NCBI GenBank assembly: GCA_902363835.1
Contig: CABJBM010000002.1
Location: forward strand, 124,001 to 188,000
Direction of reading: 5' to 3'
DNA length: 64,000 bases
DNA from: Lachnospiraceae bacterium
GTDB taxonomy: Bacteria; Bacillota; Clostridia; Lachnospirales; Lachnospiraceae
Shown here: positions 560 to 34,173 of the stretch, one piece after another
Layout of the letters: each line of letters begins with the position of its first letter
Numbering within the stretch: position 1 is the first letter of the stretch
Notes under the pieces: model-generated
Seen by the model: the letters and a program-made list of their open reading frames with translations, nothing else
Databases searched by the model: none
What the model was told of the DNA's origin: nothing
Position numbers and translations under genes: made by a program

Positions 560-582
560 AATCTTATCCCTTTCCTTGTTGC

Positions 583-623
583 TGCCCATGTTTCTTGGGC
601 ATAGTGGTATGCCTGTAAGGCAT
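583..623 (-). repeat. Four-segment hairpin element, copy A (before aminotransferase)
   Basis: On the minus strand this stretch holds four short segments: a (ATGCC), b (GGCAT), c (ATGCCC) and d (GGGCA). Segment a can pair with b, b with c, and c with d, so a:b plus c:d excludes b:c. Related copies occur at 5641-5679, 19202-19241 and 19253-19290. The last paired base lies 24 nt before the start codon, next to the ribosome binding site, and copy B has the same spacing. Confidence 0.7.
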
Positions 624-681
624 TTTTATCCTGAAACGATTTTATGAGGATTATATCACAAGTGCCGGAAGCGGTCTATTC

Positions 682-4753: not shown

Positions 4754-5617
4754 CTATTCCCCAAGTGCCCGTACCTGCTCTGTCATCTCATGGGAAAGAA
4801 TGAATCTGCCTACATAACCCACTTCCCCTGTCATCAGCACACTGCCGTTATTTTCGATTTCCACCTCAAGCACACCTCCAGGCATGTGCACATACATCTT
4901 AGGATCCGTAAGCCCCATGCGGTAGGCGGCGCCTGCTGCCGCACAGCCGCTGGTTCCCGACGCCAGGGTATACCCTGCTCCCCGTTCGTAAATCTCAATT
5001 TCAATATTAGTCCTGTCCAAAACCTTTAAAAGCTCTGTATTGATCTTTTCCGGAAAATAATCGGCAGCTTCCGAATGCTTCCCGATCCGGCAGGCCAGTT
5101 CCTTTGATATGTCGTTTAACCAAATGACGCAGTGAGGATTTCCAATGGATACACAGGTGACCCTGTAAGGAATGCTTCCAAACATCATGGTTTCATTAAG
5201 CACTTCCCGCCTTGGGCCTGTCACAGGAATTTCATCGCTGTAAAAGTTCAGTTTTCCCATGGAGACCTTTATTTTTGTCCCGTCTTCATTTAAATACTGG
5301 ATGGTCTGCTGCCCGCTTAATGTGTTGACAATAAAGCGGTTCTTCTGCACATATCCCGCATCCTTTAAATATTTTCCAAAGATTCGGACACCGTTTCCGC
5401 TTAACTCGGCTTCACTTCCATCGGGATTTAAAATCTTTACCTCCAGCTTATCCTGCCCCAGAATAGGGCCTACCAAAAGCCCGTCAGACCCAACTCCGAA
5501 ATTTCGGTTGCAGATTAAGCGGACGCTTTCCTCTGTCAGTTCCAATTCATTTTTATTGGGATCAAAGATCAGATAATCATTTCCCAGCCCGTGATATTTT
5601 TCCAAAGTGATATTCAT
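4754..5617 (-). CDS. DapF-family epimerase homologue with both catalytic Cys replaced by Ser
   Basis: 287 residues from the ATG at 5617, chosen because GGAGAGGAAAGGAG precedes it; an in-frame ATG at 5659 lies inside a repeat element. The fold markers of diaminopimelate epimerase are present: HGLGND near the N-terminus, NPDGSE, GNPHC and ERGAG. The two Cys-containing loops differ from the family: the usual CGNG is SGNG (codon AGC), and the usual ACGTG/ACGSG is ASGTSG (codon TCG). In DapF these two Cys are the acid and base that invert LL- to meso-diaminopimelate. Substrate-contact residues are kept. It may bind a DapF-like ligand, with weak or different catalysis. It follows ddl by 66 nt, suggesting a cell-wall precursor context. 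Calling it an active DapF would be unsafe. Confidence 0.85.
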   Translation of the reverse strand: MNITLEKYHGLGNDYLIFDPNKNELELTEESVRLICNRNFGVGSDGLLVGPILGQDKLEVKILNPDGSEAELSGNGVRIFGKYLKDAGYVQKNRFIVNTLSGQQTIQYLNEDGTKIKVSMGKLNFYSDEIPVTGPRREVLNETMMFGSIPYRVTCVSIGNPHCVIWLNDISKELACRIGKHSEAADYFPEKINTELLKVLDRTNIEIEIYERGAGYTLASGTSGCAAAGAAYRMGLTDPKMYVHMPGGVLEVEIENNGSVLMTGEVGYVGRFILSHEMTEQVRALGE

Positions 5618-5640
5618 GATTAAACTCCTTTCCTCTCCAT

Positions 5641-5679
5641 TGCCCACGTTTTTTGACATAAGGGTATGCCCTTAAAGCG
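5641..5679 (-). repeat. Four-segment hairpin element, copy B (between ddl and dapF-like)
   Basis: This is the most diverged copy of the element seen at 583-623 and 19202-19290. The b segment GGGCAT and d segment GGGCA are kept, while c is ATGTCA, so b:c and c:d pairing need G-U pairs or are weak. It begins right after the ddl stop codon and ends 24 nt before the dapF-like start, the same distance as copy A. It adds an in-frame ATG (5659) that could mislead start prediction. Confidence 0.6.
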
Positions 5680-5683
5680 TTCC

Positions 5684-6727
5684 TTATTTCTGTCCATCCT
5701 TAGGACAAAAAGGTGTGCCCTGAGGGTGTCTCACAATGTCCTCACATAATTCATGATATGAAATTCCGGCAGCCTTAGCTTCCTGGGGAAGAAGGCTGAA
5801 AGGTGTCATCCCCGGCAAAGTATTTGCCTCCAGGCAGTAAATGCTTCCATCCTTTTTCATGATGAAATCCACTCTGGAATAATACCCAAGCCCCAGAATG
5901 CGGTGAACCTTCAAAGCCGTTAAGCCCACGGCTTCCTCCTCTTTTTCCGTCAGCCTTGCCGGACAGATCTCCTCTGTCATGCCTGCCTGGTACTTATTTT
6001 CATAATCATAAAACCCTGCCTTTGGTATGATCTCGATTGCAGGAAGAGCTCTTTCTCCCAATATCCCCACAGAAAATTCCCTGCCAATAATTTTCACTTC
6101 CGCCAGGGTCCTGTCTTCATAAGCAAATGCAAGGTCAAGGGCCTGCTCCCATTGTTCCTTCCCATCAGCCATGGCAACGCCTACGCTGGATCCGCAGCCG
6201 CATGGTTTTACCACACAGGGGAAAGAAAAAGGTTCCAAAGGCTCCCCCCTGGTATAAATACGCCAATCCGGAGTCAGTATGCCGGCATCCTTCATCAGCA
6301 GTTTTGCCATGGGCTTATCCATGGCTTTTAAACACCCTTCATAACCGGTTCCAGTATAGGAAATGCCATGGGCATCAAGAACAGCCTGTATTTGACCGTT
6401 TTCTCCTGCACCTCCGTGTAATGCCAGAAATACCACATCTGCCTTTCCGCAGATTTCAATGACCCGGTTCCCAATATACCCCTTTCCCTTCCGATCTTTG
6501 GCCAGGCGGTCAAGTTCCGGTACACTCCTGCCGATTTCCCAGGAAAAGTCCGCTCCATCTTTCGGGCTTTTAAAACAGACCTCCTGGCCGTCATCTGCTC
6601 CCAAATAAGAATCCAGCAGGAAAACCTCATGCCCGTTTTTTATCAGAGCGTTTGTGATCATGGCTCCTGAAGATAATGATACTTCTCTTTCCGGGCTGAA
6701 GCCGCCCGCTAACACTACAATTTTCAT
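5684..6727 (-). CDS. ddl: D-alanine--D-alanine ligase
   Basis: 347 residues from the ATG at 6727, preceded by AGAAGGAAG. An ATP-grasp enzyme that joins two D-alanines with ATP for peptidoglycan precursors. Visible markers: MKIVVLAGGFSPEREVS at the N-terminus, FLALHGGAGENG, VVKPCGCGSSVGV (ATP binding), GREFSVGILG, the omega-loop YDYENKY typical of D-Ala-D-Ala rather than D-Ala-D-Lac ligases, VDFIMKKDGSIYCLEANTLPGMT (metal and product site). Length is normal for Ddl. It is first in a run with the DapF-like gene and has a good promoter upstream. Specificity is inferred from the omega loop only. Confidence 0.9.
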   Translation of the reverse strand: MKIVVLAGGFSPEREVSLSSGAMITNALIKNGHEVFLLDSYLGADDGQEVCFKSPKDGADFSWEIGRSVPELDRLAKDRKGKGYIGNRVIEICGKADVVFLALHGGAGENGQIQAVLDAHGISYTGTGYEGCLKAMDKPMAKLLMKDAGILTPDWRIYTRGEPLEPFSFPCVVKPCGCGSSVGVAMADGKEQWEQALDLAFAYEDRTLAEVKIIGREFSVGILGERALPAIEIIPKAGFYDYENKYQAGMTEEICPARLTEKEEEAVGLTALKVHRILGLGYYSRVDFIMKKDGSIYCLEANTLPGMTPFSLLPQEAKAAGISYHELCEDIVRHPQGTPFCPKDGQK

Positions 6728-6770
6728 TGCCGTCTTCCTTCTATCCATACGCATTTGTTTTATATTTTTA

Positions 6771-6799
6771 ATTATATACAGCACTTTTTATCATTTCAA
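6771..6799 (-). promoter_or_regulatory. Sigma-A-like promoter for ddl
   Basis: On the minus strand, TTGAAA (6799-6794), a 17-nt spacer and TATAAT (6776-6771) lie about 44 nt before the ddl start at 6727. It would drive ddl and the DapF-like gene. Confidence 0.7.
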
Positions 6800-19167: not shown

Positions 19168-19201
19168 GTCGTCCACCTCCCTTTTATCTTTTCCTTATTC
19201 T

Positions 19202-19241
19202 TGCCCACGATTTTTGGGCATCCAGGTATGCCCGCAGGGCG
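19202..19241 (-). repeat. Four-segment hairpin element, copy C (before cdaA)
   Basis: The best-formed copy. Minus strand: a (GCCC), b (GGGCAT), c (ATGCCCA), d (TGGGC). Possible stems are a:b with a 3-nt loop, b:c with a 6-nt loop and 6 bp, and c:d with a 7-nt loop. The ATG in c opens an 8-codon frame reading MPKNRGQE followed by a stop. It ends 35 nt before the cdaA start. Confidence 0.75.
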
Positions 19242-19252
19242 TTCCCTATTCT

Positions 19253-19290
19253 TGCCCACGATTTTTGGGCATTAAGGTATGCCACAGGGT
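19253..19290 (-). repeat. Four-segment hairpin element, copy D (tandem with copy C)
   Basis: Tandem neighbour of copy C with about 51-nt spacing. Segments c and d and their loop are identical to copy C over 19 nt, including the short MPKNRGQE frame. Segment a is degenerate, so only b:c and c:d pairing look strong. It begins right at the 3' end of the upstream membrane-protein gene. Confidence 0.7.
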
Positions 19291-19294
19291 ACTT

Positions 19295-20242
19295 CTACCT
19301 CTGCGGTCTTTGGAGTTTTCTGGCATTGATTTTCTGAACTTTCACGTCAGGCGCGCTGACCGTCAGCTTTGGAACCGCCTTGACGTAATAATAATAATCA
19401 TCATCTTCAAATTGTACGTATTCTGTCCGGGAATAATCCACTGCAAAGACAAAAAATGTATAAATTCCTGCGATAAGGAGGGAAACCAGGATTCCCACCA
19501 GGAGCCTGATCACCGATACGGACACATCCGCAACAATATCTCCGATAAAGATTACACTAAGCTGCGCAATGGTGCCTGCCACAATAGCAATGATCCAGGA
19601 ATAATCCATTGATAAGTTCCTGGTAATTGCCACCACCACAAGAGAAAGGGCAAAGGCCGTAACCATCACAAGCATCAGCTTATTAGAAAGCAGGCTCTTC
19701 ATGAGCTGCATGAATTTCTGCACCTCATCCACTGACATATCGTTGGTCAGAACCCCTGCATTCTGTTTCACATATAAAAGGGCATAATAAATAAATACAC
19801 CGCAGCTTACCGGTATCACAGAGATGACACTTCCTGACAGCCCTACGATCAGAGGGATGGCATAAGGGATCTTTAAAAGGAAAAATACCGGGGTCAGCAC
19901 CAGCAAATAACTGTCACCCGGCTGGAATCCATAATAAAGAAGTCCTACCACTACAATAAAAACAGCCATAACCAGCGTGATCTCAAGGGAAATTCCCGAC
20001 AGATGGGCAAGCATAAAACCTGCCGCCAGAAAGGAGATGGCTCCATAGGGCAAAAAGGAGCATACCAGAGCCAGCACCAATGGGATATAGGCTTCCGTCA
20101 GCTTCGTCATAAAGCCGATATTCTTATTCATCAGGGAAAACGCCAGTAAGCTGAAAATGAACTTGATTACAGGCGTTATATAGATGTCAAATCTCGCATA
20201 AAATTCTTTTAATCGTTCTTTAAATACAAGAAGGCCCATCAT
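19295..20242 (-). CDS. Uncharacterised polytopic membrane protein upstream of cdaA
   Basis: 315 residues with about 7-8 hydrophobic helices spread over residues 15-275 (for example FIFSLLAFSLM, LALVCSFLPYGAISFLAAGF, ITLVMAVFIVVVGLLYYGF, LLVGILVSLLIAGIYTFFVF) and a charged C-terminal tail rich in Tyr and Lys. I do not recognise the family. Its ATG overlaps the stop of the upstream gene (ATGA), with GGGAGG 9 nt before it, so the two are translationally coupled. cdaA follows after the double hairpin element. The context suggests a membrane or envelope function linked to c-di-AMP, which is inference. Confidence 0.85.
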   Translation of the reverse strand: MMGLLVFKERLKEFYARFDIYITPVIKFIFSLLAFSLMNKNIGFMTKLTEAYIPLVLALVCSFLPYGAISFLAAGFMLAHLSGISLEITLVMAVFIVVVGLLYYGFQPGDSYLLVLTPVFFLLKIPYAIPLIVGLSGSVISVIPVSCGVFIYYALLYVKQNAGVLTNDMSVDEVQKFMQLMKSLLSNKLMLVMVTAFALSLVVVAITRNLSMDYSWIIAIVAGTIAQLSVIFIGDIVADVSVSVIRLLVGILVSLLIAGIYTFFVFAVDYSRTEYVQFEDDDYYYYVKAVPKLTVSAPDVKVQKINARKLQRPQR

Positions 20243-33967: not shown

Positions 33968-34173
33968 ATAATATAACTTATCTGAACTTGCAAAGCAAGT
34001 GAAGATAAAAGGGCTGTTTTTCAGCCCGTCCATCCGATTATGAAAACATCTTTTGTTTTCATAATATAACTTATCCGAGCTTGCAAGGCAAGTGAGGATA
34101 AAAGGGCTGTTTTCAGCCCGTCCATCCGATTATGAAAACATCTTTTGTTTTCATAATATAACTTATCCTCACT
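33968..34173. repeat. Two-unit tandem structured repeat (92-93 bp) with a partial third unit
   Basis: Units at 33968-34060 (93 bp) and 34061-34152 (92 bp), then a partial third to 34173. Each unit holds three inverted repeats: TTATGAAAAC/GTTTTCATAA, GGGCTG/CAGCCC (on the minus strand followed by TTTTAT, terminator-like), and an outer TTATCC..CTTGC/GCAAG..GGATAA hairpin. Between units the outer hairpin changes from TTATCC/GGATAA to TTATCT/AGATAA, a compensatory pair of changes. It fills most of the 303-nt gap 33899-34201. Confidence 0.85.

What the first reader, a model, noticed from the sequence alone, without database searches (positions are those of the whole stretch)
19202..19290. Repeated intercistronic element with three mutually exclusive stems, before three unrelated genes
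Four related copies (583-623, 5641-5679, 19202-19241, 19253-19290) lie between same-strand genes, just before the ribosome binding sites of an aminotransferase, a DapF-like gene and cdaA. Each has segments a, b, c, d where a can pair with b, b with c, and c with d. The b:c stem excludes the other two, the geometry of attenuators and RNA switches. Two copies end 24 nt before the start codon. The tandem pair sits before the c-di-AMP cyclase gene. Seen directly: the segments and positions. Inference: a switch, or a mobile REP-like repeat that settles between genes. I do not know of a described family matching it.
Basis: partly seen in the sequence, partly recalled or inferred. Interest (0 to 1): 0.7.

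Follow-up and report, generated by a model that had tools for sequence, protein, structure and literature searches.

The report
Repeat that lands in ribosome-binding sites
A 52-letter repeat with two small hairpins sits at about a hundred places in some Lacrimispora genomes, mostly in the ribosome-binding site just before a gene, and each copy ends in a fresh ribosome-binding site; it looks like a spreading repeat and not a gene switch.

Summary
In detail: four copies plus a decayed fifth lie on the minus strand, upstream of an aminotransferase, a dapF-like gene and cdaA. They belong to a large repeat family. The nearest held genome, G001, has at least 148 units in 105 clusters; all 25 congeners searched have 5 to ~140. 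It is patchy elsewhere in the family (30 of 200 genomes).

Stems a:b and c:d are supported by compensatory changes within and across genera. Stem b:c is not, so the exclusive-stem switch lacks support.

A unit is a ~42-nt two-hairpin core plus a ~10-nt purine tail. In 99 of 105 clusters an ORF start follows (median 14 nt); at 44 of 96 sites the tail is the only good Shine-Dalgarno (SD) sequence. Empty orthologous sites show insertion into the SD or a similar AGGAAA run, often with short locus-specific direct repeats. Arrays differ by whole units between sister species.

Best reading: a spreading, hairpin-bearing interspersed repeat that enters SD-like sites and rebuilds the SD. How it moves is unknown. 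Rfam and eight paper searches gave no matching family.

The parts
567..626 (-). Copy 1: single unit before the aminotransferase; hairpin I about 621-611 (GCCTTACAGGC), hairpin II about 601-583, tail 582-570
   Evidence: R1 575-633, 68.1 bits and R2 567-626, 67.5 bits (it is one of the copies the models were built from); ATG at 559 read; the same site is filled in G001 at 6290555
5625..5683 (-). Copy 2: gene-proximal unit before the dapF-like gene (ATG 5617); hairpin I about 5678-5668, hairpin II about 5658-5641 with one arm letter lost; tail carries the SD GAGGAAAGGAG
   Evidence: R2 53.4 bits; filled in G001 at 6295652, empty in G223 and G224
5681..5738 (-). Decayed distal unit in tandem with copy 2; encodes the last codons of the upstream D-Ala-ligase-like ORF (stop 5686-5684)
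   Evidence: alignment; translation; not recovered as a separate match
19186..19245 (-). Copy 3: gene-proximal unit of the tandem pair before cdaA (ATG 19167); hairpin I 19240-19230, hairpin II 19220-19202; cdaA keeps its own GGGAGG SD downstream
   Evidence: R2 74.3 bits; orthologous site filled in 5 and empty in 20 of 25 congeners, by eye
19238..19296 (-). Copy 4: distal unit of the tandem pair, starting at the stop codon (19297-19295) of the upstream ORF; hairpin II 19271-19253
   Evidence: family D4, alignment; not reported separately by the model search, probably because its ends overlap copy 3

Best explanation
This is a family of small interspersed repeats of Lachnospiraceae. One unit is a ~42-nt core, which as RNA folds into two adjacent hairpins (a:b and c:d), followed by a ~10-nt purine tail that reads as a Shine-Dalgarno sequence. 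Shown: units lie head to tail in arrays of 1 to 4 or more, co-oriented with the next gene; the last tail is followed by a start codon; orthologous sites are empty in other species; arrays gain and lose whole units. Shown in part: insertion falls in the SD or a similar AGGAAA/GGAAAC run, and flank and tail share a short direct repeat more often than mismatched pairs do. Inferred: because the tail restores the SD, insertion and later loss are nearly neutral for the gene, so the repeat is tolerated before housekeeping genes. Also inferred: single units are copied into new sites by microhomology at GGAAA (template switching or illegitimate recombination), while arrays change length by slippage or recombination between tails. 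It is not a switch and not a regulon.
For: Copy number and orientation: 148 matches in 105 clusters, all 36 multi-unit clusters of one strand. Structure: (0 of 500 shuffles reach the double-change count), b:c negative. Position: 99 of 105 clusters followed by an ORF of at least 50 codons, median 14 nt; 28 of 105 on the opposite strand. SD: 44 of 96 sites have no good SD beyond the tail. Empty sites: cdaA empty in 20 of 25 congeners by eye; of 35 G001 sites, no sense-strand unit before the gene in 30 of 32 compared in G224 and 33 of 35 in G223 (by eye; R2 finds rplB and pcrA in G224 and a weak mutL unit in G223; the mnmA remnant in G223 is by eye). Direct repeats read: def AGAGGATA, leuS AAGGAGGAA, rsmE GGAAGAGGAA, rnz, dapB and rnpA 7 nt; rplB of another genus TCCACAATGAA. 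Permutation: longest shared run 5.73 against 4.98 in G001 (n=73) and 6.50 against 4.93 in 16 other genera (n=18), both p<=5e-5. Whole-unit differences: 17 of 26 G219 sites differ from G220 or G205 by gaps of 50-54, 101-104 or 155-156 nt. Decay with distance: proximal unit scores higher in 30 of 36 arrays. Microhomology: dapF-like site and a rplW-rplB spacer in genus g115.
Against: No insertion was caught between near-identical strains; the cleanest absence (L303 in G205) is a loss, since G001 also holds the unit. Direct repeats are absent or very short at some sites (runs of 3-4 nt at 4 of the 18 cross-genus flanks without a partial unit, counted from its list with L148:8528) and the dapF-like site shows none. 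A decayed upstream unit could mimic a direct repeat; I removed only those a simple pattern caught. The random-place control for start codons is weak (mean 66.9, maximum 77 of 105). The tail resembles any SD, so SD targeting and selection of survivors before genes cannot be told apart. One insertion is at a non-SD site and one unit in G224 lies antisense to aroB. Strong stem covariation means the hairpins matter for something, which a purely passive repeat does not explain.
Confidence: 0.72

Rival explanations
1. A transposase-mobilised non-autonomous element (MITE-like): an unknown enzyme recognises the two hairpins and inserts the core into SD-like DNA with a 7-11 nt target duplication.
For: Flank and tail share locus-specific direct repeats (read); copy number differs 20-fold within one genus; hairpins covary.
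Against: No terminal inverted repeat beyond the ~4 letters shared by arms a and d; no Y1_Tnp in high-copy G001 and G205 (other transposase families were not searched); some junctions show microhomology and no duplication.
Confidence: 0.33
2. A cis-regulatory RNA module: the two hairpins are bound by a protein or the ribosome and set translation or mRNA stability of many housekeeping genes.
For: Covariation across genera; c:d stem has 38 G.U against 14 A.C cells, as expected for selection on the sense strand (the a:b stem is 30 against 33 with its outer pair, 24 against 12 without); the gene-proximal unit is best kept; slightly more open start region with the element (0.541 against 0.502, 55 of 96 higher, Wilcoxon p=0.002).
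Against: Most sites are empty in congeners and unit number varies freely; target genes are of mixed function; the accessibility effect is small.
Confidence: 0.2
3. The first reader's switch with mutually exclusive a:b, b:c and c:d stems.
For: b:c complementarity exists in most copies (89.4% of cells pair in 138 copies).
Against: That equals the shuffled level (89.1%), with no excess of paired changes, and 0 double-change cells across genera; pairs 17:34 and 20:31 break often where a:b compensates.
Confidence: 0.04

Closest known systems
BOX elements of Streptococcus pneumoniae (PMC3049150, passages seen)
   Same: Small interspersed repeat, modular with variable numbers of an internal unit (boxB), predicted RNA stem-loops, orthologous inserts that vary in length between strains
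   Different: The paper's passages give BOX terminal inverted repeats and target duplications; here there is no clear terminal inverted repeat, the whole element is the repeated unit, it is fixed in orientation before start codons and its tail is the SD
TAACTGA direct repeats of Beggiatoaceae (PMC4679880, abstract and outline seen)
   Same: Over 160 sets, arrays of a few copies, mostly a few nucleotides upstream of start codons, before unrelated and essential genes, patchy distribution
   Different: Seven-letter unit without hairpins; its outline has a section headed that canonical ribosome binding sites are rare there, whereas here the unit carries one
REP elements with RAYT (Y1) transposases (recalled)
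   Same: High-copy hairpin repeats between genes, tandem clusters
   Different: No fixed orientation before start codons in REP; Y1_Tnp absent from two high-copy genomes here
MITEs, ERIC, Correia and RUP repeats (recalled; PMC3049150 passages)
   Same: Short non-coding repeats that insert next to genes and can form RNA hairpins
   Different: No inverted termini found here; insertion point is the SD itself

Membership tests
Riboswitch or attenuator with exclusive stems | Alternative b:c stem conserved by compensatory change | tested here: not met
   double-change cells 5 vs 2.8 and 0 vs 0.9 shuffled
Riboswitch or attenuator with exclusive stems | Target genes form a pathway or regulon | tested here: not met
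   one search list (names by eye) and (30 of the 33 targets sampled by every third; 20 of 30 with an NCBIfam match at 1e-20): RNase Z, RibF, Der, ObgE, PolA, PcrA, ACP, ScpB, TreR and others
Rfam family | Match to a curated covariance model | tested here: not met
   0 at gathering score in the window; 4 weak matches up to E 5 in 5 element-bearing loci, none at an element
REP/RAYT | Y1 transposase present in carrier genomes | tested here: not met
   20 of 25 congeners have PF01797, but high-copy G001 and G205 have none
MITE / BOX-like interspersed repeat | High copy, dispersed, empty orthologous sites | tested here: met
MITE / BOX-like interspersed repeat | Terminal inverted repeats | tested here: not met
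   unit ends read from alignments A3 and A4: GAAACAC at the 5' end, purine tail at the 3' end; only arms a and d could pair, over about 4 letters
MITE / BOX-like interspersed repeat | Target-site duplication | tested here: inconclusive
   excess of shared runs (p<=5e-5 in both sets), but lengths vary (3-12 nt among the 18 cross-genus flanks without a partial unit) and some junctions show microhomology only
MITE / BOX-like interspersed repeat | Mobilising transposase | tested here: inconclusive
   only PF01797 was searched
Beggiatoaceae-type start-codon repeats | Tandem repeats just upstream of start codons of many unrelated genes | tested here: met
   99 of 105 clusters

The most novel reading that the evidence does not exclude
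A dedicated, still active mobile element whose target is the ribosome-binding site itself: it recognises SD-like purine runs, inserts a two-hairpin core and leaves a duplicated SD, so that it can settle before essential genes without harm, a bacterial analogue of a SINE with a built-in safe landing, moved by a machinery not yet described.
Probability: 0.3. Interest if true: 0.82.

Novelty: new variant of a known kind. Interest (0 to 1): 0.62.

Why it matters
Small bacterial repeats are usually found where they do least harm. This one sits at one of the most constrained short sequences of a gene, the ribosome-binding site, and keeps it working by carrying a replacement. If confirmed, it shows how a parasite can invade more than a hundred housekeeping leaders, gives a natural series of 0, 1, 2, 3 or more hairpin units before the same gene in sister species for testing how leader structure affects translation, and warns annotators that an ATG inside hairpin II (as at 5659 in this window) is a false start.

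Tried and rejected
Switch with b:c stem: tested on 138 Lacrimispora copies and on 29 cross-genus rows and dropped. REP with Y1 transposase: dropped as a requirement. Known Rfam family. Phage or virus origin: one exact-pattern scan of viral contigs gave 0; only this pattern was tried. SD-opening function: the folding difference was small. Paper searches that led nowhere or to parallels only. The cdaA loci of 80 named genomes gave names but only 2 weak matches (E 0.0016 and 0.038), none in the six Lacrimispora-like ones. The script oriented several - strand loci wrongly; I used it only where the orientation is plain.

Rows dropped before counts: 10 low-scoring or odd clusters of 105 and then those with a partial unit upstream (74 left, 73); 13 of 148 G001 matches and one duplicate before alignment A3 (134 kept, plus 4 window copies, the decayed fifth left out); 5 of 26 non-window matches before the cross-genus flank test; negative start offsets (96 of 99 kept); 3 of the 33 sampled targets were not scanned. 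In one search the G220 partner of L151 is only 83% identical and may not be its orthologue, and two sites lack a G205 partner.

Full report
1. What is in the window. The copies at 583-623, 5641-5679, 19202-19241 and 19253-19290 are real and lie on the minus strand. A fifth, decayed copy lies at about 5738-5681 in tandem with the second. Downstream starts are at 559 (aminotransferase, cut by the window end; its name rests on the reading of the sequence), 5617 (dapF-like, PF01678) and 19167 (cdaA, PF02457 and PF19293). Rfam gives no match in the window.

2. A repeat family. The window's own assembly is not held; the nearest genome, G001, shares 22% of sampled 31-mers. A covariance model of the five copies finds 148 matches at E<=1 there (150 of 1374 candidates scored, so a lower bound). 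They form 105 clusters: 69 single, 31 double, 3 triple and 2 quadruple, each cluster on one strand, at about 52-nt steps. In 800 kb of evenly spaced sequence there are 11 matches at E<=1. A second model, R2, finds the family in 25 of 25 congeners searched, with 5 to 10 matches in G201, G209, G210, G211, G222 and G223, 21 to 38 in eleven others and 104 to 142 in eight (150 candidates scored per genome). In the family it is in 30 of 200 genomes at E<=0.001 (27 scored per genome, stricter filters), and in the order in 6 of 295 at E<=1e-4, all six in the same family (18 scored per genome). These two scans are shallow, so absence is not proven.

3. Structure. On 138 copies the two-hairpin structure pairs in 92.6% of cells against 85.9% shuffled, with 109 double-change cells against 36.4 (0 of 500 shuffles). 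The number of pairs with any double change is not unusual (5 against 4.3; 194 of 500). Across genera (29 rows, aligned to the model, so leaning towards it) there are 33 double-change cells against 7.1; examples are hairpin II arms GCC/GGC, GCAC/GTGC and GCGC/GCGC. So two hairpins are maintained and the exclusive middle stem is not. In c:d there are 38 G.U against 14 A.C cells; in a:b 30 against 33, or 24 against 12 without its outer pair.

4. Where it sits. Of 105 G001 clusters, 99 are followed on the same strand by an ORF of at least 50 codons starting within -6 to +60 nt, at a median of 14 nt. The opposite-strand control gives 28 of 105; random places in the same loci give a mean of 66.9 and a maximum of 77, a weak control because internal starts count. 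One of the six exceptions, 5700954, precedes a 49-codon ORF (by eye). Of 96 sites, 44 have no good SD beyond the tail, so the tail serves as SD; at 31 the downstream stretch is better. The targets are mixed: by eye era, der, obgE, engB, rplB, rnpA, def, leuS, mnmA, mutL, polA, pcrA, fabF, metK and many others (names recalled). Of 30 targets scanned, 20 had an NCBIfam match at 1e-20, among them RsmE, RNase Z, PNP, TreR, MnmL, RibF, ScpB, Der, ObgE, ACP, PolA and PcrA. In 19 genomes of other genera, units stand before genes that by eye look like dnaK, rplB, rpmJ, atpF, feoA, trkA, tex and a U32 peptidase; for some (L137, L139, L143) no clear gene start follows.

5. Empty sites. At cdaA, 5 of 25 congeners have the element (G001 two units, G208 at least three, G205, G206 and G217 one long-form unit each) and 20 have none, by eye. 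G218 reads GGTAGAAAGAAATAAAAGGGAGG where G217 reads GGTAGAAA, element ending AATAATAAGGAA, GAGATAAAAGGGAGG. G219 and G220 are empty although nested among filled relatives, so loss also occurs. For 35 G001 sites I compared G224 (32 available) and G223 (35): a sense-strand unit before the gene is present in G224 only at rplB and pcrA, and in G223 only as a weak mutL unit and an mnmA remnant (by eye; with R2, which misses the remnant). The junctions fall in the SD. Shared runs on both sides of the insert: def AGAGGATA, leuS AAGGAGGAA, rsmE GGAAGAGGAA, rnz and dapB GAGGAAA, rnpA AGGAAAA (read). In another genus, rplB of G115 has TCCACAATGAA on both sides. Against chance: the longest run shared by 5' flank and tail of the same cluster averages 5.73 against 4.98 when paired at random (n=73 G001 clusters without a visible partial unit upstream), and 6.50 against 4.93 in 18 units from other genera, p<=5e-5 each. 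Some flanks share only 3-4 letters.

6. How it may move. At the dapF-like site, G223 and G224 have the ligase-like gene overlapping the dapF-like start (..KHGKGVLS and ..RHGKGALE, then ATGA). In the window and G001 the ligase-like protein instead ends in residues read from the repeat (..RHPQGTPFCPKDGQK and ..RHGITLQVCPDDQKRGQ). The left junction lies in GARACAC, the right in GGAAAGGAG, both like the unit's own ends. In genus g115 a unit sits in the rplW-rplB spacer at AAGGAAACRCCCGA, not an SD, in G501, G511 and G507, and not in G508, G115 and G503 (by eye). These junctions look like copying of one unit at short homologies; the locus-specific duplications at def or leuS would also suit a transposase. 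G001 and G205 have no Y1_Tnp match. I put microhomology-directed insertion ahead of a dedicated enzyme, without proof.

7. Turnover. Of 26 G219 sites, 17 differ from G220 or G205 by gaps of 50-54, 101-104 or 155-156 nt, 4 by other lengths (38, 61/62, 83, 85) and 5 have no gap of 20 nt or more (G205 available for 24; the 83-nt case rests on a doubtful partner). Units within an array are often near-identical. The gene-proximal unit scores higher than the most distal in 30 of 36 arrays (R1 includes 7 flanking positions, a small bias), and is closer to the consensus in 21, further in 7, tied in 6 of 34. New or maintained units lie by the gene; old ones decay away from it.

8. Against known things. 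BOX elements share modular, length-variable, hairpin-forming insertion (PMC3049150, passages). TAACTGA repeats of Beggiatoaceae share position before start codons (PMC4679880, abstract and outline). Neither carries an SD in the unit as far as I saw. Eight paper searches (open-licence PMC only) showed no description of this family; that is not proof of absence.

9. Verdict. Observation confirmed; the repeat reading supported, the switch not. A new variant of a known kind, interesting for its landing site.

Noticed in passing
window 5684-6784 (-), end at 5738-5684: The last 13 or so codons of the D-Ala-ligase-like ORF are read from a decayed repeat unit; in G223 and G224 the gene instead overlaps the dapF-like start.
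   Followed up: yes
window 5659: The mechanical ORF 4754-5659 starts at an ATG inside hairpin II of the element; the likely start is 5617.
   Followed up: partly
L260, L264, L265 (cdaA site) and G001 544540, 4951646, 5321608: A longer form of the unit (roughly 80 nt or more) has an extra hairpin of the type CACCCGATAAAGCGGGTG before hairpin II.
   Followed up: no
L425 (G224, upstream of aroB): Two units on the strand opposite to aroB, an exception to co-orientation with that gene.
   Followed up: no
G001 whole chromosome: Unit strand follows long blocks of the chromosome (mostly - at 0.4-1.9 Mb, + at 2.0-5.0 Mb, - above 5.1 Mb), as gene orientation along replichores would give.
   Followed up: no
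window 34018-34168: A 59-nt exact direct repeat with 92-nt spacing (family D10) with internal inverted repeats.
   Followed up: no
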